This document shows, one piece after another, positions 2 to 17,031 of a stretch of DNA of 64,000 nt (position 1 is its first letter; every line of letters starts with the position of its first letter). Under the pieces are notes generated by a model. It saw only the letters and a list, made by a program, of their open reading frames with translations, was not told the DNA's origin and did no database searches. The translations under genes and the position numbers were made by a program. This stretch comes from Gammaproteobacteria bacterium (GTDB taxonomy: Bacteria; Pseudomonadota; Gammaproteobacteria; Enterobacterales; Alteromonadaceae), in the NCBI GenBank assembly GCA_017302255.1, contig JAFLDV010000002.1, forward strand, positions 124,001-188,000, given 5' to 3'.

Positions 2-1324
2 AAAAATTTGGAGAACGTCCAAGGCGATGAGCGTGACGTCATCTATATCAGTATCTGCTACGGCAAAACGAGCAGCGGTCAGCTGAGCCAGAATTTTGGC
101 TTGCTGAATAAACCAGGCGGCGAGCGGCGTTTAAACGTGTTGATCTCCCGTGCGCGTTTAGCCATGGAAGTCTTTGCCAATTTCAAAGGTGATGAGCTAA
201 AAGTGGACGTCGACAGCCCGTTTGGCGTGCGCTCACTGCAAATCTTTTTGCAATTTGCCGAGACTGGCAAGTTGAATAAAGCGCAAGAACAGGCGCAGCA
301 ACAAAACTTCGCTTTTGGCGCCTTGTTGCATCAAGCCATTCAGCGGCTCGGCTATCAAGTGGCGAGCCGTGTTGGCAGTCAAGGTTATTACATCGATTTG
401 GCGATACGCCACCCAGCAGATCCAAGCAAATTTGTGCTGGCACTGGAATATGATGGCGCCGGTTATTACGGCGCTGTATCGGCACGTGACCGCGAGCGAC
501 TGCGGCAAAGTGTGTTGGAGGGACTTGGCTGGAGTTTCGAGCGAATTTGGTCCACTGATTGGTTTCGCGATCCAGACGCCGAGTTACATCGGCTAAAAAT
601 ACTGATTGATCAAGCAATTGCACAGCATGACGCACTGATGTCGTCGTTAACGACGAAAGCAGCAAGCGCTAAACAGCTGCAAGCTAAACCGAGCGTGCCC
701 GAGTCATCGGCACAGCCCATCGCTCGAATTGAAGAAGAGCAGCCTGAGTTGGTTACATGCGCGACGCCTTATAAAAAGACTGATGTTTCGACCTTAAATA
801 TCCCGAATGTCGATGATTTCAGTGCCATTCCAACGGCTGTATTAGTGCATGCCGTCGAGCGGATTGTTGCCGCAGAATATCCAATTTTTGCCAGCTTAGT
901 CGCCGCCCGCCTCGCCAGCGTAGCCGGACTTACCCGAGTTGGCCCGAAAATTAAACGCACTGTCGACCAAGCAATCCAAAGCGCAGTCCACAAGGGGCTC
1001 ATTCAGCTTACTGCTGATGAGGTGTTATGGCCGCAGGGCCGTAACACGGTGAAACTCAGAAACTGGAACGGCGTGGATGCCGCGATGCGCAAACTGGAAA
1101 ATGTCTGTGATGCCGAGCTTACCAATGCTTTATTGCTTTCAGTTCAAGATGCCCATGCCATCAGCATCAGCGATGCCGCTTCTGCTGCTTTGAGCTTGTT
1201 AGGCTTTCAACGCGCCACCGCTCAAGCAACAGAACGCATGAGTAACTTAGCGCAGGTGCAATGCGAAAAAGGTGTACTGACTTACGACAATGATCGGCTG
1301 AAAATAGCAGTAGCGACGGGTTAG
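2..1324 (+). CDS. C-terminal part of a large SF1 helicase with Vsr-like nuclease and DUF3320 domains (5' truncated by window)
   Basis: The reading frame is already open at the left edge, so only the C-terminal ~440 residues are present. The first residues carry late superfamily-1 helicase motifs (VQGDERDVIYIS, then GGERRLNVLISRAR, with the conserved Arg of motif VI). At about nt 392-460 follows IDLAIRHP then LALEYDG, the pattern of the MTES_1575/Vsr-like restriction endonuclease fold. The tail from about nt 815 on (AVERIVAAEYPIF...GLTRVGPKIK) matches DUF3320. This domain order is known from very large DUF4011/DUF3320 helicase-nucleases that act on DNA and are common in defence loci; that role is inferred here. 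Walker A would lie outside the window. Confidence 0.82.
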   Translation, partial: KNLENVQGDERDVIYISICYGKTSSGQLSQNFGLLNKPGGERRLNVLISRARLAMEVFANFKGDELKVDVDSPFGVRSLQIFLQFAETGKLNKAQEQAQQQNFAFGALLHQAIQRLGYQVASRVGSQGYYIDLAIRHPADPSKFVLALEYDGAGYYGAVSARDRERLRQSVLEGLGWSFERIWSTDWFRDPDAELHRLKILIDQAIAQHDALMSSLTTKAASAKQLQAKPSVPESSAQPIARIEEEQPELVTCATPYKKTDVSTLNIPNVDDFSAIPTAVLVHAVERIVAAEYPIFASLVAARLASVAGLTRVGPKIKRTVDQAIQSAVHKGLIQLTADEVLWPQGRNTVKLRNWNGVDAAMRKLENVCDAELTNALLLSVQDAHAISISDAASAALSLLGFQRATAQATERMSNLAQVQCEKGVLTYDNDRLKIAVATG

Positions 1325-7835: not shown

Positions 7836-8843
7836 GTGAGCAAATACATAAGAATAACGGATCCGAAATCAATAGACTCAACTAGCGTGTTAAGCCAAAC
7901 AACTGGCGACAACTAAGTAACAATTCAATTTTCCGAGACCGTTACGGACCACAAACTACTTCGACAAGTCGACGAGCTCTGCAAGTCAGCTGGCAATAAT
8001 CTATGCATTCGGTTCTACGGGCATTATCAAACAGGGTTTGATTGCAACATCCTGTCTTATTTGCCCAATGTTAAAAGCCTATCAGTGAATTGCCTGCGTT
8101 CGGTAAGCAACTTCGCAGCGCTACGAGAGCTGGAAAATATCGAAAAACTTAATGTCGGCATCGACGAACTTGATGAAAAGGACTTTCTTTCTTGGGAAAA
8201 TCTCAAGCAGGTATCATCCCTTTGTTTAGGCAGTTCACGAAAGAACAATGTCGACCTCAAGTATCTCGATGAGTATGCAAATGTCGAAAGTTTTTTTCTA
8301 AATGGACACAGCAAAAATATCGACGCAGTTGGAGCAATGTCGAGAGTGGCGGAACTATCACTGTCTATTTCTGCCAAGGCTTCCATAAGTTTTGTTAATC
8401 GGCTGGCGAAACTTCGCAAATTTAAGCTAGTTCTCGGTGGGCGCGACAATCTTGATGAAGTAACCAACTATGGGATCGAGGAGATTGAAATAGTTCGGGT
8501 GCGTGGGTTTAGTAGCTTCGGGAACTTAGGTGAGTTCAAGAAATTAAAGAAACTATTAATTGAAGACCAAATCCGGATTGAGGAGCTCAGGATCCCGAGT
8601 GAACTTCCCAATCTGGCCGAACTCAAGATTTTCAATTGCAAGACACTGTCCGTGCTCGAAGGACTTCACAATCTTGTGGCACTACAACATCTTCGTATCA
8701 ACATGACTGCAATCGAGTATTCCGATTTCATTAAGCAGAAACTCCCTAATTCATTAAAGATACTGGCGTTTTATACAAAGTCGGAAAAAAGTGACCTGGA
8801 GATTCGAAATAGTCTGGATAGGCTCGGTTATGTTGACCGATGA
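7836..8843 (+). pseudogene. Leucine-rich-repeat protein interrupted by an in-frame TAA
   Basis: The main open part encodes about 260 residues of degenerate leucine-rich repeats (for example LRELENIEKLNVGIDEL, LPNLAELKIFNC, LHNLVALQHLRINM). Its first ordinary start would be TTG at 8061 in mid-repeat, with no ribosome site. The same frame continues upstream without interruption to 7917 (codons reading NLCIRFYGHYQTGFDCN), then meets a TAA at 7914-7916, then is open again to a GTG at 7836 preceded by AGAGGG. The simplest reading is one gene of about 335 codons broken by a single nonsense codon at codon 27. LRR domains bind proteins; no further role is visible. Confidence 0.65.
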
Positions 8844-9711: not shown

Positions 9712-9894
9712 TAGGCATCCTTGTCTAGTTGGAATTACTTTGCCACTTAGCACAGCGATTGCCAATAGTGGCATGGTTAAGGGCGGATTTTTGGACCTAA
9801 AACCAAAGGAACTTCCTTGCTAGAAATTGGGATTGCTTACACAGTAGACAAAAACACATAAAAAAGGTACAACCAAGCAAAAAGGAGTTTGGCT

Positions 9895-11625
9895 ATGGAT
9901 AAGATGCAGTTACTAGGGTTGATAATTGTCGGTGTGGCGATCGGTTTTGTGCTGATTCTTCGTGAGATGTTCAAATGGAATTCTGCGCTTAAACAAAAAG
10001 TAGAATCACTCACCGCCGAACAGGAAGAATTAAAGCAAGTTATTGATGACCGAGAAGCTTCGCTTGCAACCTCACGCGATTTAATTACTGAGCTAGAACA
10101 ACTTGTTGAAAAGATAAATAATGAAAACAATTCGCTCAGGCGTTTTATTCATATCCGAGACACTACGCAAGAGCTTGAACGGCTTAACTCCTTAATCGCG
10201 AAAAATGAAGCAGAAGCGAAGGACAAAATACGTAATATCCTCGCGGATGCGAATAGTGAAGCTGCTGATATTACTGAAAAAGCACGTATTTATGCTGAGA
10301 CCTTGAAACGAGAAACAAACGCTGATGTTAAAGCAAAACGAGAAAGGCTACAGTCAGCACTTGATGACGCCAATAGCCAAGCCGCCGCAATTATTAATCA
10401 AGCTCAGCAAAATGCAGAAAATATCGCAGGCGATGCCTATCGTGCTCTGCGCGAAGCAGACCGGCTTGAGCAAGTCATCGAAGCATTGAAGAACACTGTA
10501 AAAGGTTATGGCGATGCTCATCTGAAACCAACTTATGGCTTGTTAGACGAACTGGCCGAAATGTATGCATTTAAAGATGCAGGACAAGAACTTAAACGCG
10601 CCAGAGATCGCACTAAATTAATGGTGACATCTGAACGCGCTGCGACCTGCGATTATGTGGAAAAACACCGAGCTACTACGGCAATAAACTTTGTGATTGA
10701 TGCTTTTAATGGCAAGGTCGACTCAATTATCTCCCGATCAAAAACTGATAACTTTGGCAAGCTTGAGGCTGAAATCCGCGATGCCTTTGCGCTGGTGAAC
10801 CACAACGGCACAGCGTTTAGAAATGCACGCATTAGCGACGAGTACCTGCAAGCCAGAATTGAAGAGCTCAATTGGCTGACTGCCGTAAACTTAATCCGCG
10901 AACAGGAAAAAGAAGAGCAACGTCGAATTCGTGATCAAATCCGGGAAGAAGAAAAAGCTCGGCGTGAATATGAGCGTGCAATCAAAGAAGCAGAAAAAGA
11001 AGAAGCCGCGATTCAAAAAGCGTTAGAAAAATTACAAGTACAATTGGAAAAGGCTAGTGATGGCCAACGCGCTGAATTTGAGGCTAAATTGGCTGAGATG
11101 CAGCAGAAGTTAGTAGATGCTGAGGCGAAAAACCAACGTGCACTATCAATGGCTCAGCAAACTAAAACAGGGCATGTTTATGTCATTTCGAATCTAGGGT
11201 CGTTTGGTGAGAATGTATATAAAGTTGGCATGACACGCCGACTCGAACCTTTAGACCGAGTGAAAGAATTGGGTGATGCCAGCGTACCTTTCCCATTTGA
11301 TGTGCATGCGATGATTTGGAGCGAAGACGCACCAGCGCTTGAACGTGATTTACATCGATATTTCATGCGCGCACAACTCAACAAAGTGAATCCGCGCAAA
11401 GAGTTTTTCCGCTTGAGTATTAGCGATATCAAAACCCACATTGAAGGTCGGGGCCATGAAGCCGCTTGGACTCTGCAAGCGCAGGCAGCAGAATACCGAG
11501 AAACTTTAGAAATCGAAAAACGCATTACTGCAGATCCAGCGATAGCCGCTGAATGGACGCGGCATCAACTCGAAGTTGAAGCTGAGATGCTCAATGAAGA
11601 CGAAAATGATACTAATGGTGAGTGA
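9895..11625 (+). CDS. Membrane-anchored DUF4041 + GIY-YIG (T5orf172) nuclease, SNIPE-like
   Basis: 576 residues from the ATG at 9895 (AAAGGAG 8 nt upstream; the TTG at 9889 is too close). Residues 5-24 are a transmembrane helix (LLGLIIVGVAIGFVLIL). A long coiled coil covers roughly 30-200. DUF4041 lies at about 204-330 (YGDAHLKPTYGLLDELAEMY, NHNGTAFRNARI), followed by a second charged coiled coil. The C-terminal T5orf172-type GIY-YIG nuclease starts at GHVYVIS (426-432), with YKVGMTRR (442-449) and the catalytic-type Glu at E483 (ALERDLH). This architecture is the one I know as the anti-phage protein SNIPE, which cuts phage DNA during entry at the membrane. Its role here is inferred from architecture. 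Confidence 0.88.
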   Translation: MDKMQLLGLIIVGVAIGFVLILREMFKWNSALKQKVESLTAEQEELKQVIDDREASLATSRDLITELEQLVEKINNENNSLRRFIHIRDTTQELERLNSLIAKNEAEAKDKIRNILADANSEAADITEKARIYAETLKRETNADVKAKRERLQSALDDANSQAAAIINQAQQNAENIAGDAYRALREADRLEQVIEALKNTVKGYGDAHLKPTYGLLDELAEMYAFKDAGQELKRARDRTKLMVTSERAATCDYVEKHRATTAINFVIDAFNGKVDSIISRSKTDNFGKLEAEIRDAFALVNHNGTAFRNARISDEYLQARIEELNWLTAVNLIREQEKEEQRRIRDQIREEEKARREYERAIKEAEKEEAAIQKALEKLQVQLEKASDGQRAEFEAKLAEMQQKLVDAEAKNQRALSMAQQTKTGHVYVISNLGSFGENVYKVGMTRRLEPLDRVKELGDASVPFPFDVHAMIWSEDAPALERDLHRYFMRAQLNKVNPRKEFFRLSISDIKTHIEGRGHEAAWTLQAQAAEYRETLEIEKRITADPAIAAEWTRHQLEVEAEMLNEDENDTNGE

Positions 11626-11935: not shown

Positions 11936-12478
11936 ATGACTAATCAAAAACAAGAAAGCCAGCTCTGCCCTCAGACAATTTTCAATATTGCTATTGGTGA
12001 TGCTGAAAGGCTATTAGACATGTTTGACAACCTTCCTAGCGAGCAACACAAAGAAAACGAAGTACTTAAACGTGCCGCTTATGTGATGACGTTTACTGCA
12101 TGGGAAAGCTTTTTTGAATGTTGGATTGAACAGCAAGTCTCAAAACGCTTGGAACCTTTAAATGACGGCTTTGCTTCGAATTATATTCAAGCTCGTCTAA
12201 AAAATTCAATTTCGCGTTTACATAACCCAACAAGTGCCAAAGTAAAAGAACTCACCAAAGAGTACCTCCAGCAAGATGTAACAGAAAGTTGGAAGTGGGC
12301 TAATTTTCAACAAAAAACCGCTTGCGAGTATTTGGATAAGCTGATGTCACGTCGGGGCGGTTTGGTACACCAAGCCCGCATTAGCAACGATCCAAAACAT
12401 CCTCACGCCGTCAAACGCGATGATGTGGACAAAGCGATAAGGTTTTTGAAAGGGTTAGTAGGTGCGATGGTTGTATGA
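11936..12478 (+). CDS. HEPN-domain protein, candidate RNase
   Basis: 180 residues, mostly helical. Near the C-terminus is RRGGLVHQA: R140-x4-H145, the HEPN ribonuclease signature (Rx4-6H). With the earlier AAYVMTFTAWESFFECWIE helix and WKWANFQQKTACEYLDKLMSRRG it fits the RiboL-PSP-HEPN/MAE_28990-like group. HEPN proteins of this size are usually RNases or RNA-binding toxins in defence and toxin-antitoxin loci. There is no MNT-type nucleotidyltransferase antitoxin beside it. It lies 159 bp before the ATPase gene on the same strand and may belong to the same transcription unit. RNase activity is an inference from the motif. Confidence 0.75.
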   Translation: MTNQKQESQLCPQTIFNIAIGDAERLLDMFDNLPSEQHKENEVLKRAAYVMTFTAWESFFECWIEQQVSKRLEPLNDGFASNYIQARLKNSISRLHNPTSAKVKELTKEYLQQDVTESWKWANFQQKTACEYLDKLMSRRGGLVHQARISNDPKHPHAVKRDDVDKAIRFLKGLVGAMVV

Positions 12479-12637
12479 ATTGGATTAGTTTGGCGTAAGT
12501 AAAGATTAACTATGATACGCAAAAGGCAAGAGTTCATCCGATAATTTTTGGAAAGTTACGTGATATTAAATCCATTAAATGGATACTAAATAAATTTCAA
12601 ATTAACAATATTGTAAAGTTAAAATTGGTTTTAAAAT

Positions 12638-14170
12638 ATGGATAAGATAAGAATAAAAAACTTAAGATCGATCAATGATAGTGGTTATATAGAACTTAAA
12701 AGCATAAATATTGCTGTTGGATGCAACAGCTCAGGGAAAAGTACGTTTCTAAGAACGTTTCCGTTATTAAGGCAAAGCACTGAGAAAAAAACGAGGGGGC
12801 CTATTCTATGGAGTGGGAATACAATTGACTTTGACAGCTTTGAAACAGCTGTCAACTCAATTGATGATAACGGAAAGGAGAAAAATATAGAATTTTTGTT
12901 TGTTCTCAACATAAATAATTCAGACAGATTCAATGTAAGTCAGGACAAAGAACAAATTAAGATTGAATGTAATGTATGCATTTCCAAAAATAAAGTTGGC
13001 CGCGGCTGTCATACATCAAAATACTCCGTAAATCTTTATGGTCATGAAATTGAATTTATTTTTGATGAAGATGGCACGATAATTAGCTGCAAGTCTGAAA
13101 AGCTCACATGGGAGCTTAAAAAGAATGATTTAAAATATCAAGTTACCAATACTGATAGTTTGCTTCCTATATTTCATGTGGATAGATATCTATTCCTAAA
13201 TAAAGAACAAGATGAAAAAAATATAACATCTATTGTTTTTAAGCAATTGCTGACAATATTCAAAGGAATTAGTGGTAGCAAAAGTGATGATAAAACTCAT
13301 AGATTAGTGAGAAACTTTCTTTCAAAATACAGGTCGGCCGAAGAAAGGATGCATTTATTAAAACTAACAAGATCCACGTCGAAATGGAAAAATCATTTTA
13401 GGAATGAGCATGTTCCAGACTTTGATTTTATATCTGGGTTGGCGGATTTACATTTTGTGATGGAAAGGAGCTATTACGTAAATCAAGAAATTACGAGAGT
13501 ATTAAATGGTGTAAGGTACTTCGCACCACTCAGGACAACAGCTCAACGTTACTATAGATATCAAGATCTCTCTGTAGATGAAATTGATAGTAAAGGTGAT
13601 AATTTAGGCATGTTTCTATCAAACATTAATAGGAATAAAAAGAAGCAGTTAGATGAATGGACTAAGGAGCATTTTGGCTTTGTTATTAATCATGATTACT
13701 CTGGTGGGCATGTTTCAATATTTATTCAAAATTCAACGACAGGTCTTCAGAATAATATAGCAGATGTCGGATTTGGTTATTCCCAAGTACTGCCAATAAT
13801 TGTTCAATTGTGGTCTATTTCTTCTGGGTATGAAAACTCGTTAAGTAGAGCCAAGAGAGACAGTTATATTTATGTGATAGAGCAACCCGAACTGCATTTG
13901 CACCCAAAAATGCAGGCAATGATAGCTTCAGTATTTGGTGCATCAATTAGTTTAGCTAAAAAAAATGATATAAATTTGAAATTTATCATAGAGACTCACA
14001 GTACATCTATTATATCGAAGCTTGGTGAGCTAACTTGTTCTGGTGAAATCGAGAAAGATTCAATATCGATACTGCTATTTGAAGAGGGAAATGGAGAAAG
14101 AATACGATTTTCAAAATTTGATGATCAAGGATTTTTAACAGACTGGCCAATCGGTTTTCTTGAGTACTAA
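12638..14170 (+). CDS. AAA/ABC-type ATPase (AAA_15/AAA_21 class) of a probable defence pair
   Basis: 510 residues. Walker A is GCNSSGKST (28-36). Walker B is YVIEQPELHLHP (412-423) with the Glu-rich form typical of OLD/AAA_15/RecF-like ATPases. A His switch/D-loop region follows (ETHS, 452-455), preceded by the signature-like ADVGFGYSQVLPI. The middle is a long insertion with coiled-coil character. It has no TOPRIM domain of its own; the gene 2 nt downstream supplies a candidate. This organisation resembles AriA of PARIS or GajA-like modules without being clearly either. Codon use and base composition are much more AT-rich than the flanks, suggesting transfer. The ribosome site is weak. Confidence 0.85.
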   Translation: MDKIRIKNLRSINDSGYIELKSINIAVGCNSSGKSTFLRTFPLLRQSTEKKTRGPILWSGNTIDFDSFETAVNSIDDNGKEKNIEFLFVLNINNSDRFNVSQDKEQIKIECNVCISKNKVGRGCHTSKYSVNLYGHEIEFIFDEDGTIISCKSEKLTWELKKNDLKYQVTNTDSLLPIFHVDRYLFLNKEQDEKNITSIVFKQLLTIFKGISGSKSDDKTHRLVRNFLSKYRSAEERMHLLKLTRSTSKWKNHFRNEHVPDFDFISGLADLHFVMERSYYVNQEITRVLNGVRYFAPLRTTAQRYYRYQDLSVDEIDSKGDNLGMFLSNINRNKKKQLDEWTKEHFGFVINHDYSGGHVSIFIQNSTTGLQNNIADVGFGYSQVLPIIVQLWSISSGYENSLSRAKRDSYIYVIEQPELHLHPKMQAMIASVFGASISLAKKNDINLKFIIETHSTSIISKLGELTCSGEIEKDSISILLFEEGNGERIRFSKFDDQGFLTDWPIGFLEY

Positions 14171-14172
14171 AA

Positions 14173-15255
14173 ATGATATTTTCCCTCAATTTTAAAGTAA
14201 CCGATCTTAAATCGATCGATAATATCCCTGTTATCGGTTTTATAGAGTTTATATCTGAAAAGATTAAAAAAGGAGAACATGTATTTATCGGTTCTATTGA
14301 ATTATTCAAAGGGCTATCGGTTTTCCCAGGTATTTCACAAGCAGCTAGTAAAATTTTTTCTACGCACAGTAGAAATTTAGCTTTTATGGGTGAGTTTAGA
14401 AACTTTGATAAATGCTGTGAAGTTAAATACATAGATGAAGATAAAATATTTCCTTATGATGAAATTTATAATATTCTTAATTTAAAAAAAATTATTTTAG
14501 AAAGGTTGTGGGGTTATTATTTTTCAGAGAGTGTAATGGTCTTTGAACACTTTCTAGAAAAGGATATTTACACAAAGGTATTTAACCTGGTTTCGTCATT
14601 TAGAGGTGATAATTTTATTGTTAATTTTTCTGTTAGGCATGGTGGGGGTAATGACACTGCTAATGTTGCGGAGTATGAATTTAACAATAGGCATAATGTG
14701 TTTTGTATTTGTGATAGCGACATTAAACACCTTAACTCTAATGTTGGACAAACTGCAAAAAATGTTAAGAAGAAATTTGAGGAAAATAACAGGAATAATT
14801 TCTATTTAATACTTGGTGTGCATGAAGTGGAAAACATTATCCCAAGTGCAATATATGAGCAGACAGCAAGGAATGAACAATCTTTAACTGTAGAGTTTAT
14901 GAAGTATATGGAGAATAACTTTCCTGATCATTTGTTATGTTATGATATTAAGGATGCTCATACTTACGAAAATGTTTTTTGCATTGATAATGAATTTTCA
15001 CGATTTTGGAAGCCGGTATATGTTGGCTTTGTTGGTGCGGATGAAATAAATAGAATTAAATTAGAGTATGAGAGCGGCGCTGATAATATAAGGCTGCTTC
15101 CGAAATTGAGTGGCTTATGTAAAAAGGCTAAAGAAAATTTTCTGGAAAAGAAAAGTAATGATGTCTGTGTTTCACTACGTATAATGGCTCAGTGGGATTT
15201 GCTCTATTGTTTTATGTTAGAGTTTCTAGTTTCATCAAGGCCAATTAGGATATAG
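14173..15255 (+). CDS. TOPRIM-like (DUF4435-like) candidate nuclease partner of the ATPase
   Basis: 360 residues, starting 2 nt after the ATPase stop, so translation is probably coupled. The N-terminal ~110 residues are unrecognised. Then come VMVFEHFLEKDIYTKVF (E125/E129, D131), FCICDSDIKHLN (D181-S-D183) and GVHEVENIIPS (E218, E220, N221). This spaced E...DxD...HxxEN pattern is what I associate with TOPRIM-like DUF4435 proteins such as AriB of PARIS. The C-terminal ~130 residues are not assigned. Strong AT bias (10 G/C of 60 at 14461-14520). Nuclease activity and the pairing are inferences; the family call is tentative. Confidence 0.6.
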   Translation: MIFSLNFKVTDLKSIDNIPVIGFIEFISEKIKKGEHVFIGSIELFKGLSVFPGISQAASKIFSTHSRNLAFMGEFRNFDKCCEVKYIDEDKIFPYDEIYNILNLKKIILERLWGYYFSESVMVFEHFLEKDIYTKVFNLVSSFRGDNFIVNFSVRHGGGNDTANVAEYEFNNRHNVFCICDSDIKHLNSNVGQTAKNVKKKFEENNRNNFYLILGVHEVENIIPSAIYEQTARNEQSLTVEFMKYMENNFPDHLLCYDIKDAHTYENVFCIDNEFSRFWKPVYVGFVGADEINRIKLEYESGADNIRLLPKLSGLCKKAKENFLEKKSNDVCVSLRIMAQWDLLYCFMLEFLVSSRPIRI

Positions 15256-15387
15256 TGTTCTATGTTTTCATTGAATTATTAGAACGGAAGTGTGTTCACT
15301 GTATTTATATTTTCAGTCACCCAGTTGTCGAAAAAGATGTTTTAAATAGTGTCATTCTGCCCTTCGCAGAACTCAGGGTGTAAGGCA

Positions 15388-15417
15388 GGCAAAGTGCAAA
15401 CTCGTTTGCACTTTGCC
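15388..15417 (-). terminator. Hairpin after ilvA
   Basis: A perfect 13-bp inverted repeat, GGCAAAGTGCAAA around loop CTCG, 10 bp after the ilvA stop. No T-run follows on the minus strand, so it may be a Rho-dependent or processing hairpin. It also lies between the convergent defence genes and ilvA. Confidence 0.6.
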
Positions 15418-15426
15418 ATCACAGTT

Positions 15427-17031
15427 TCACCCCGCCGTCAAAAACGTCTGATAAGCGCTATTGCCGCTCACTAGCTGATACGGATATCCCAAGGCATCCA
15501 AATGCCCTTCAATGTCTGCAGGATTTGCAATTTCAAAGCCTGCCAACACATCGCCAGTTGCAGCGCCGTGGTTGCGGTAGTGGAAGAGCGTGATGTTCCA
15601 TTTCTCGCCGAGGGTGTTGAGGAAGTTCATCAACGCCCCTGGGTATTCAGGGAAGTTAAATTGGTAGACTTGCTCTTGCACTAAGCGCGGTGGCATGCCG
15701 CCAATCATGTAACGCACGTGCAGTTTGGCGAGTTCGTCGTCGGATAAATCTTGGAACTCGTAGCCGGCGTTTTGCAGTGCTTGGGTCACTTGTTTGAGCT
15801 CTTCTGCGCCGTTTCGAAGTTTAATGCCGACAAAAATATGCGCTTTGTGGTCGGACGCATAACGATAGTTAAACTCGGTAATGGCGCGGCCACCTAGGGT
15901 TTCGCAGAACCTACGGAAACTGCCTTTTTCTTCGGGGATGGTGACGGCAAATACCGCTTCTTTTTTCTCACCAAGTTCGCAGCGCTCCGACACATAACGC
16001 AAGGTGTCGAAATTCAAATTCGCGCCGGAAAGCACCGCGGCAAATTTTTGGCTGTGATCAGCATTCGCTGCGTATTTTTTAAGGCCAGCTAGCGCCAATG
16101 CGCCAGCCGGTTCGGCGACAGCACGCAGATCTTCAAAAATATCTTTGATGGCGGCACAAATCTCATCGCTAGAAACTGTGACGACTTCGTCGCAGTAAAG
16201 CTGCGCGAGTTTGAAGTTCTCGCTGCCAATGCGTTTGACCGCAACGCCATCGGCAAATAAACCAACCCGTGGCAAGGTCACTGGCGCGCCGTTTAATAGC
16301 GCCACTTCCAAACAGTTGGCGTCATCTGGCTCTACGCCAATCACCCGCACGTTTGGCAGCACCGCTTTAATGTATACCGCCATGCCAGCAAGCAAACCAC
16401 CGCCGCCAACTGGAATAAACACGGCGTCCAAGGTCGCATCTTGCGTTAATAACTCTTTGGCGACAGTGCCTTGGCCAGCAATCACATCGGCATCATCAAA
16501 CGGTGGAATGTACACCGCGCCTTCGTTGGCTGCGAGTTCGATGGCAAAGCGGTTCGCTTCATCAAAGGCGGTGCCGTGTAACATCACATGGCCGCCGCGC
16601 GCTTTCACTGCGGCGATTTTGATTTCTGGCGTGGTGATAGGCATCACAATAGTCGCGGCAAGGCCAAGCTTGCTGGCGGACATCGCCACGCCTTGCGCAT
16701 GGTTACCCGCCGACGCACACACTACTTTCGCGCTTGGATTGGCGAGCGCCACTTTATGCAGTTTATGAAAAGCGCCGCGTAGCTTAAACGAATACACCGG
16801 CTGATGATCTTCGCGCTTGAGCAGCACTTGATGGCCAAGACGCTGCGACAATTTGCTCATCGCCTGCAGCGGTGTTTCCACCGCGGCTTGATAGACTGGC
16901 GATAATAAAATCTCGCGCAAATACTGCTGCTGCAGGCTTTGCGCTTCCAGCGCTGACAGGGCGCTTAGCGGATAATCGGCATGGCGTAGCGGTAACAGCG
17001 ACGCCGAATTGACTGCAGTCATACTCATCAT
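15427..17031 (-). CDS. ilvA: Threonine deaminase (threonine ammonia-lyase), biosynthetic
   Basis: 534 residues, a little longer than the E. coli enzyme (514). It converts threonine to 2-oxobutanoate, the first step toward isoleucine, in the cytoplasm with PLP. The PLP lysine lies in [11 protein letters not shown]. The Gly-rich phosphate loop is [10 protein letters not shown]. Two C-terminal ACT-like regulatory domains begin around residue 340 ([20 protein letters not shown] and [20 protein letters not shown]) and normally give isoleucine feedback inhibition. The start overlaps the ilvD stop by 4 bp (ATGA), so translation is coupled. Last gene of the ilvLGMDA operon. Confidence 0.97.

What the first reader, a model, noticed from the sequence alone, without database searches (positions are those of the whole stretch)
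12638..15255. Coupled AAA ATPase and TOPRIM-like partner: possible new or divergent PARIS/Gabija-like system
Two genes 2 nt apart encode an OLD/AAA_15-type ATPase (Walker A at 28-36, VIEQPELHLHP Walker B) and a protein with an E...DSD...HEVEN pattern like DUF4435/TOPRIM nucleases. In PARIS the ATPase AriA precedes the DUF4435 nuclease AriB, the same order. Neither protein matches a well-known member closely by eye, and the pair sits beside other defence-type genes. Seen: motifs, spacing, order. Inferred: nuclease identity and function.
Basis: partly seen in the sequence, partly recalled or inferred. Interest (0 to 1): 0.85.

Follow-up and report, generated by a model that had tools for sequence, protein, structure and literature searches.

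The report
Two-gene ATPase-TOPRIM defence pair
Two adjacent genes encode a probable infection-sensing ATPase and a TOPRIM-type nuclease partner that travel together in many bacteria and prophages, a cousin of the PARIS anti-phage system whose function appears untested.

Summary
ORFs 12638-14170 and 14173-15255 lie 2 nt apart. The first is an AAA_15/OLD-type ATPase. The second has no Pfam domain, but AlphaFold (pLDDT 94), motif layout and profile comparison make it a TOPRIM protein. In 95 aligned members E125, D181, D183 and E220 are invariant, 129 is D or E, and K260 is kept in 90: the order of the OLD two-metal site.

The pair is a unit. In the collection scans 107 of 108 high-scoring ATPases have the partner downstream, 101 of them within 20 nt; the exception lies near a contig end. 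Starting from the partner, 12 of 12 other loci have a related ATPase upstream. Nine cassettes lie in the P2-like gpA-gpQ hotspot; 38 of 5426 E. coli genomes carry one.

It is not PARIS by the published rule (no DUF4435 match), nor Gabija or Menshen. It lies near PADLOC's candidate PDC-M55, a name found in no held paper. Most likely it is an abortive-infection sensor-nuclease pair. Trigger, substrate and defence itself are inferred.

The parts
12638..14170 (+). gene A: AAA_15/AAA_21 (OLD/Rad50-like ABC) ATPase, 510 aa, probable sensor
   Evidence: Pfam AAA_15 81.2 bits (cut-off 32.1), AAA_21 56.1 bits (cut-off 27); PADLOC NsnB 7.3e-42, PDC-M55A 6.2e-37, AriA 3.9e-24; AF2 pLDDT 90.1; Foldseek Rad50, retron PtuA, GajA, Septu PtuA; profile match to OLD 6p74 1.3e-11
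14173..15255 (+). gene B: TOPRIM-type protein, 360 aa, probable nuclease effector
   Evidence: PADLOC PDC-M55B 7.3e-6; AF2 pLDDT 94.1; invariant E125/D181/D183/E220; hhalign to DUF4435 and OLD TOPRIM far above shuffled controls; Foldseek top hit OLD C-terminal region 6nk8, weak, E 0.04
14545..14559 (+). TOPRIM motif 1: E125 and E129 (i+4) of gene B
   Evidence: E125 95/95; position 129 D 90 + E 5 of 95
14641..14649 (+). GGG motif, residues 157-159 of gene B, after strand 2 of the model
   Evidence: 91, 92 and 95 of 95; strand 153-156
14713..14721 (+). TOPRIM motif D181-S-D183 of gene B
   Evidence: D181 and D183 95 of 95 each
14821..14835 (+). HEVEN motif, residues 217-221 of gene B (E220 = metal-B glutamate by layout)
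   Evidence: E220 95 of 95, E218 78, N221 78
14950..14952 (+). K260 of gene B, candidate catalytic lysine
   Evidence: 90 of 95; compare Bp OLD K562 (PMC6755086 passages)
11936..12478 (+). RiboL-PSP-HEPN gene: left border of a variable slot (context, not shown to belong to the system)
   Evidence: Pfam HEPN_RiboL-PSP 1.3e-18; 85% identical DNA in relative G385 with other cargo between it and ilvA; not found near the other 112 cassettes
15427..17031 (-). ilvA-like gene (name read from sequence, from no call): right border of the variable slot (context)
   Evidence: protein matches in 28 of 31 genomes, own included; DNA similarity stops at its 3' end in the 9 relatives compared, apart from the HEPN stretch in L218

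Best explanation
A two-gene anti-phage system of the split-OLD type (ATPase and TOPRIM on separate genes). Supported by sequence, fold prediction and genome comparison: gene A is an OLD/Rad50-like ABC ATPase; gene B is a TOPRIM protein with the residues of a two-metal active site; they form one conserved cassette carried by prophages, plasmids and a variable genomic slot. Inferred: the ATPase assembles into a complex that holds gene B inactive, a phage protein or DNA event changes its ATP-dependent state, and the freed or activated TOPRIM cuts a nucleic acid, so that infection aborts. I lean slightly towards RNA/tRNA as substrate (as for AriB) over DNA (as for OLD/Gabija), about 50:40, because a separate TOPRIM chain is the AriB arrangement and some related ATPases sit before toxin-like or PIN-like proteins (weak evidence).
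For: Co-occurrence: of 114 ATPases scoring 150 bits or more, 113 have B (107 of 108 without the window and the 5 seed loci); of those 107, 101 lie within 20 nt, 3 at 35-91 nt and 3 are short frames 163-380 nt away. Starting from B, 12 of 12 non-window matches in 398 genomes have a related ATPase directly upstream, although only 3 of these 12 ATPases exceed 150 bits. Pair distances correlate over 94 pairs, Spearman 0.59, 0 of 1000 permutations as high. TOPRIM: AF2 elements put E125 after strand 120-124, GGG after strand 153-156, DSD after strand 175-180 and E220 in the helix after strand 211-213, as described for TOPRIM and Bp OLD (PMC6755086 passages); hhalign scores 44.8 (DUF4435 type) and 37.5 (OLD) against at most 14.3 in 20 column-shuffled controls for each. 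Defence context: 9 loci between GPA-like and portal-like genes (Pfam run on one representative of each), the hotspot that holds old-tin in P2 (PMC9122126 section 10); the one E. coli cassette examined sits in the same place. Mobility: GC 32.3% against 52.9% in the neighbouring ilv-like genes; the ATPase is in the window's genome and 1 of 59 relatives.
Against: No function was tested. Foldseek gives no hit at E 1e-3 or better for gene B in the PDB or viral library, so the fold rests on motifs, predicted topology and profile comparison. hhalign probabilities are moderate (74 and 60%) and its E-values refer to a single comparison. The window's gene B has E where 90 of 95 have D at position 129. 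A single-sequence search with P0002 found it only in its own genome among 369 of its class and in no plasmid. In the genus slot, 3 of 9 relatives show no HEPN-like gene within 5 kb of ilvA, and 6 of 10 cargo proteins scanned have no PADLOC match.
Confidence: 0.72

Rival explanations
1. It is PARIS proper, a divergent AriA-AriB that standard models miss, working by AriB release and tRNA cleavage after sensing anti-restriction proteins.
For: Same gene order; AriA profile match 3.9e-24 for A; hhalign links B to DUF4435 including the xEN motif; 3 of 95 B proteins match the AriB model, best 1.9e-6.
Against: A scores better against NsnB and PDC-M55A than AriA. P0002 has no DUF4435 match and only 1 of 95 has one, at 6.9e-4. 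The pair in L158, whose B matches the AriB model at 5.2e-23, is not matched by this family's HMMs even at E 10.
Confidence: 0.15
2. A DNA-degrading split OLD/Gabija-like nuclease: A and B together cut phage or host DNA.
For: Foldseek's best hits for B are OLD/GajA TOPRIM-bearing chains; a lysine after the acidic motifs resembles Bp OLD K562, needed for processive DNA cleavage; A's best profile match in the PDB is T. scotoductus OLD; the E. coli partner's only PADLOC hit is a GajA model, weak, 0.027.
Against: No helicase domain in P0002 or the neighbours scanned; the domains are on two chains; the substrate cannot be read from sequence.
Confidence: 0.35
3. A toxin-antitoxin or housekeeping repair pair rather than phage defence.
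For: Rad50-like ATPase fold; one archaeal OLD-class ATPase is reported to act in the cell cycle and apparently not in antiviral defence (PMC12796447, start of abstract in the search listing only).
Against: Sporadic distribution (window genome plus 1 of 59 relatives), low GC, P2-hotspot, filamentous-phage and plasmid locations.
Confidence: 0.1

Closest known systems
PDC-M55 (PADLOC-DB 2.0.0 phage-defence candidate, proteins A and B)
   Same: Both window proteins match its models (A 6.2e-37, B 7.3e-6); 58 of 95 B members match PDC-M55B at 0.01.
   Different: B matches over only residues 153-250; 37 of 95 members, and the E. coli partner in L157, do not match it. The best match is L142 (2.7e-39), whose ATPase is a distant outlier (102.8 bits; long branch). 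So the window pair lies in a larger sister branch. A search for 'PDC-M55' found 0 papers.
PARIS (AriA + AriB)
   Same: AAA_15 ATPase followed by a separate TOPRIM gene; profile-level similarity of B to DUF4435.
   Different: No DUF4435 match by the published 27-bit rule; AriA is not the nearest ATPase model.
OLD / Gabija GajA
   Same: ABC ATPase plus TOPRIM with the E-x3-[D/E] ... DxD ... E ... K/R layout.
   Different: Two chains instead of one; no GajB-like gene beside it.
Menshen (NsnABC)
   Same: NsnB is the best PADLOC hit of gene A (7.3e-42); [quoted passage not shown]
   Different: No NsnC match among 95 B proteins at 0.01; the upstream gene is HEPN; the largest recurrent neighbour clusters span 11 of 113 loci. 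DUF262 was not searched for by name across the loci.

Membership tests
PARIS | ATPase with AAA_15 at 32 bits or more, or AAA_21 at 27 or more | tested here: met
   81.2 and 56.1 bits; rule in PMC9122126 methods passage
PARIS | partner with DUF4435 at 27 bits or more | tested here: not met
   P0002: no DUF4435 hit at E 1; 1 of 95 members at 6.9e-4
PARIS | AriA hexamer sequesters AriB; trigger releases it; tRNA cleavage | not testable with these tools
   mechanism from PMC12409363 introduction; needs experiment
Gabija | ATPase and TOPRIM in one chain, next to a UvrD-like helicase | tested here: not met
   two separate ORFs; no helicase domain in P0002 or the upstream neighbours scanned; the downstream gene is ilvA-like by eye
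OLD class 1 | single protein with N-terminal ATPase and C-terminal TOPRIM | tested here: not met
   separate ORFs in the window and in the cassettes tabulated
TOPRIM nuclease fold | E after strand 1, G after strand 2, DxD after strand 3 | tested here: met
   AF2 secondary structure with invariant columns; definition in PMC6755086 passage
TOPRIM nuclease fold | significant match to a solved TOPRIM structure | tested here: inconclusive
   top Foldseek hits are OLD TOPRIM regions but E 0.04 at best
Menshen | three genes: NsnA (DUF262), NsnB ATPase, NsnC | tested here: not met
   NsnB matched; NsnC 0 of 95 (the model exists in the library); the window's upstream neighbour is HEPN
PDC-M55 | match to both PADLOC models | tested here: inconclusive
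   both match, B only partly and weakly; the tool gives no cut-off
AbiL (AbiLi + AbiLii) | AbiLii-type partner | not tested
   gene A matches AbiLi at 9e-9; I did not confirm that an AbiLii model was in the library

The most novel reading that the evidence does not exclude
The window pair belongs to a widespread, unnamed superfamily in which one kind of sensor ATPase swaps nuclease effectors in the adjacent gene: TOPRIM in the main branch; in sister branches an Ntox17-like toxin, PIN-like proteins, and apparently PD-(D/E)XK-like and PLD-like proteins. If so, one sensing module serves many killing modules, and the TOPRIM branch is a PARIS-like system with its own trigger and target.
Probability: 0.5. 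Interest if true: 0.75.

Novelty: new variant of a known kind. Interest (0 to 1): 0.55.

Why it matters
It widens the ATPase-TOPRIM defence class from PARIS, OLD and Gabija to a separate two-gene family found in several bacterial phyla, prophages, a filamentous phage and plasmids. Because 38 of 5426 complete E. coli genomes carry a close copy (the one examined, EC11, has it in a P2-like prophage), its trigger and substrate can be tested at once in a laboratory strain. The ATPase tree, where partner type follows ATPase clade, offers a way to ask how one sensor is rewired to different nucleases.

Tried and rejected
Rejected: PARIS membership (no DUF4435), Gabija (no helicase, two chains), Menshen (no NsnC match). 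The Pfam hit Peptidase_M10_C for P0002 (0.008, below its cut-off) is taken as chance: 1 of 95 members. Sequence search of the PDB with the B profile gave only chance-level hits. The PDB also gave no sequence match for the AriB control L158, so I cannot say whether the absence of AriB from the Foldseek list means anything. The viral structure library gave nothing. Promoter and terminator counts were at or below shuffles. An NsnC search of 185 genomes rang nowhere, so it gave no NsnC sequence to compare. The HEPN gene upstream was considered as a third component and set aside: a homologue stays in relatives with other cargo, and it does not recur near the other 112 cassettes.

Weak points. The PIN, PD-(D/E)XK and PLD labels of outgroup partners, also used as labels in the tree, are by eye. 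Of nine such partners scanned in Pfam, L130 matches Ntox17 (2.9e-5, just under its cut-off), L140 PIN_3 (0.0079, under), L129, which I label PIN, matches only RH_dom (0.0015, under), and six match nothing at 0.01. HEPN homologues in 5 of 6 relatives were recognised by eye. ilvA and similar names are read from sequence. P0001 itself has no DUF3696 hit; that name comes from annotations of relatives. AriA and OLD rows are long branches in the tree and their placement is unsafe. The 94 of 94 Walker A count is circular, because that motif was a filter, which kept 96 of 108 ATPases; only the E-x-P-E-x-HLHP count there is informative. Of 19 plasmid records with the ATPase I looked at five, one of which (Vibrio) has another partner, as has P2-EC5 among the phages.

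Full report
What is there. Two ORFs, 12638-14170 (510 aa) and 14173-15255 (360 aa), lie on the + strand with 2 nt between them. The cassette has 32.3% GC against 52.9% in the adjoining ilv-like genes and 47.5% in the window. Gene A matches AAA_15 (81.2 bits) and AAA_21 (56.1 bits); in PADLOC its best models are NsnB 7.3e-42, PDC-M55A 6.2e-37 and AriA 3.9e-24. Gene B has no Pfam family above its cut-off and one PADLOC match, PDC-M55B at 7.3e-6.

The pair is a unit. P0002 alone found no plasmid and one phage, and only its own genome among 369 of the class. The ATPase found 19 plasmid and 2 phage records. I looked at five of the plasmid and both phage records: five carry the same two genes (Pseudomonas phage 62-2, filamentous; Lacticaseibacillus; Ruegeria; Exiguobacterium; Planococcus), while Vibrio p337 and P2-EC5 have another partner. 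With HMMs built here, 114 ATPases score 150 bits or more: the window, 5 seeds, 74 genome and 34 viral loci. 113 have gene B; the exception, L053, ends about 250 bases after the ATPase. Without window and seeds this is 107 of 108; 101 lie within 20 nt, three at 35-91 nt, and three (L024, L068, L083) are short frames 163-380 nt away. Of 31 lower-scoring ATPases only L142 has a B. Some loci are near copies: 110 full-length B proteins reduce to 100 at 80% identity. Because that scan was chosen by gene A, I reversed it: a B profile over 398 genomes of the phylum hit 11 genomes with 13 matches; apart from the window, 12 of 12 have a related ATPase (E 2e-24 or lower) directly upstream on the same strand. 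Nine of these 12 ATPases score only 80-146 bits, so they lie outside the main branch. Over 94 pairs the A and B distances correlate (Spearman 0.59; 0 of 1000 permutations as high).

Gene B is a TOPRIM protein. A3 holds the window's B and 94 others (seeds, near copies and one short frame left out). In these 95, E125, G159, D181, D183 and E220 are invariant, position 129 is D in 90 and E in 5 (the window has E), and K260 is kept in 90. AlphaFold2 gives pLDDT 94.1, pTM 0.90. The model places E125 after strand 120-124, the GGG after strand 153-156, DSD after strand 175-180, and E220 in a helix after strand 211-213. A paper on OLD nucleases names the invariant glutamate, the glycine after strand 2 and DxD as the marks of TOPRIM, and gives the Bp OLD site as E400, E404, D455-x-D457, T506-x-E508 and K562 (PMC6755086, passages read); T. 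scotoductus OLD has E377, D381, D431-x-D433, E480 and R487 (PMC7049728, passages). Foldseek's best PDB hits are OLD C-terminal regions and GajA, but weakly (best E 0.04, probability 0.92; none at 1e-3). Profile-profile comparison scores 44.8 (74%) against 9 DUF4435-type proteins, some of them fused to an ATPase, and 37.5 (60%) against 13 OLD C-termini, while 20 column-shuffled controls for each reached at most score 14.3 and probability 0.16%; the DUF4435 alignment brings E, DxD and the xEN motif into register.

Gene A. AlphaFold2 pLDDT 90.1. Foldseek's 50 best hits include Rad50, retron PtuA, GajA and Septu PtuA at 1e-8 to 3e-11. The profile's best PDB sequence match is T. scotoductus OLD, 1.3e-11. 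In a tree of 66 chosen ATPases the window groups with Pseudoalteromonas, Vibrio and a gammaproteobacterial MAG (100/100). Partner type follows the tree: 7 changes against a shuffled mean of 24.1, with partner labels largely by eye. Sister ATPases sit before other proteins: Ntox17-like (L130, 2.9e-5), a weak PIN_3 match (L140) and others that I label only by eye.

Where it lives. Nine cassettes, two pairs of them near copies, lie between a GPA-like replication gene and a portal-like gene; in one (L098) the cassette is turned round (Pfam run on one representative of each cluster). PMC9122126 (section 10 read) describes the gpA-gpQ site of P2-like phages as a hotspot of anti-phage systems that holds old and tin in P2. 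The E. coli EC11 prophage has the cassette at the same place, and 38 of 5426 complete E. coli genomes carry it (the location was examined only in EC11). In the window's genus the slot between the HEPN gene and ilvA varies. Of 27 other genomes with an ilvA match I fetched nine: each has other genes at the 3' end of ilvA, and six have a HEPN-like gene further on within 5 kb (five by eye). Cargo there includes a KAP NTPase, an HsdR_N protein, a DNA methylase and an AAA_15/21 ATPase; six of ten proteins scanned had no PADLOC match at 1e-4, and a HAM1/GHMP-kinase pair does not look like defence. Among 60 genomes near the window's, its own included, 2 have the ATPase.

Mechanism. By analogy with PARIS, where an AriA hexamer holds AriB until a phage protein releases it and AriB cleaves tRNA (PMC12409363, introduction read), I propose sensing by A and nucleic-acid cleavage by B with abortive infection. 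Supported here: ATPase, TOPRIM site, tight pairing, defence-hotspot location. Inferred: restraint, trigger, substrate, defence itself.

Known or not. By the published PARIS rule it fails on DUF4435. A review proposes PARIS as class 4 OLD, with ATPase and TOPRIM on separate genes (PMC10568477, passages); this pair has that layout. It is related to PADLOC's candidate PDC-M55, matched by 58 of 95 B proteins; of the ten B proteins scanned one by one, L142 matches best (2.7e-39). 'PDC-M55' is in 0 of the held papers. Searches for DUF4435/TOPRIM/AAA15, DUF3696/TOPRIM, ATPase-Toprim/AbiLii/AriB and a prophage combination showed no description of this pair in the titles and abstract starts listed (the lists are capped). 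Supplementary tables could not be read, so an unnamed entry in the P2-hotspot tables cannot be excluded.

Noticed in passing
window 9889-11625 (+): PD-Lambda-1 defence protein (PADLOC 4.4e-118; T5orf172/DUF4041 domains). A homologue also lies near the cassette of L045 (1e-82).
   Followed up: partly
window 8-1324 (+): C-terminal part of a PDC-S37/Hhe-like protein with an MTES_1575 nuclease domain (PADLOC 2.2e-138), cut by the window start.
   Followed up: no
window 11936-15427 and L215-L223: Genus-level variable slot between a HEPN gene and ilvA, with other cargo in each of the nine relatives fetched (KAP NTPase, HsdR_N, DNA methylase, AAA_15 and others).
   Followed up: partly
L008:2700-5708: In Exiguobacterium pEspB the ATPase carries a roughly 445-aa N-terminal extension with a PriCT_1 primase domain (2.8e-10), perhaps a fusion with a plasmid replication gene.
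   Followed up: partly
L130:6743-7480, L140:3326-3808, L010:1912-2913, L144:6798-7721: Sister ATPases precede different small proteins (Ntox17-like, PIN-like, and by eye PD-(D/E)XK-like and PLD-like), suggesting effector swapping.
   Followed up: partly
L024, L068, L083; L071, L112: Cassettes with short B frames (first three) or a short ATPase frame (last two), perhaps decaying or assembly errors.
   Followed up: no
window 8061-8843 (+): Leucine-rich-repeat protein (LRR_14, 1.9e-7, below its cut-off).
   Followed up: no
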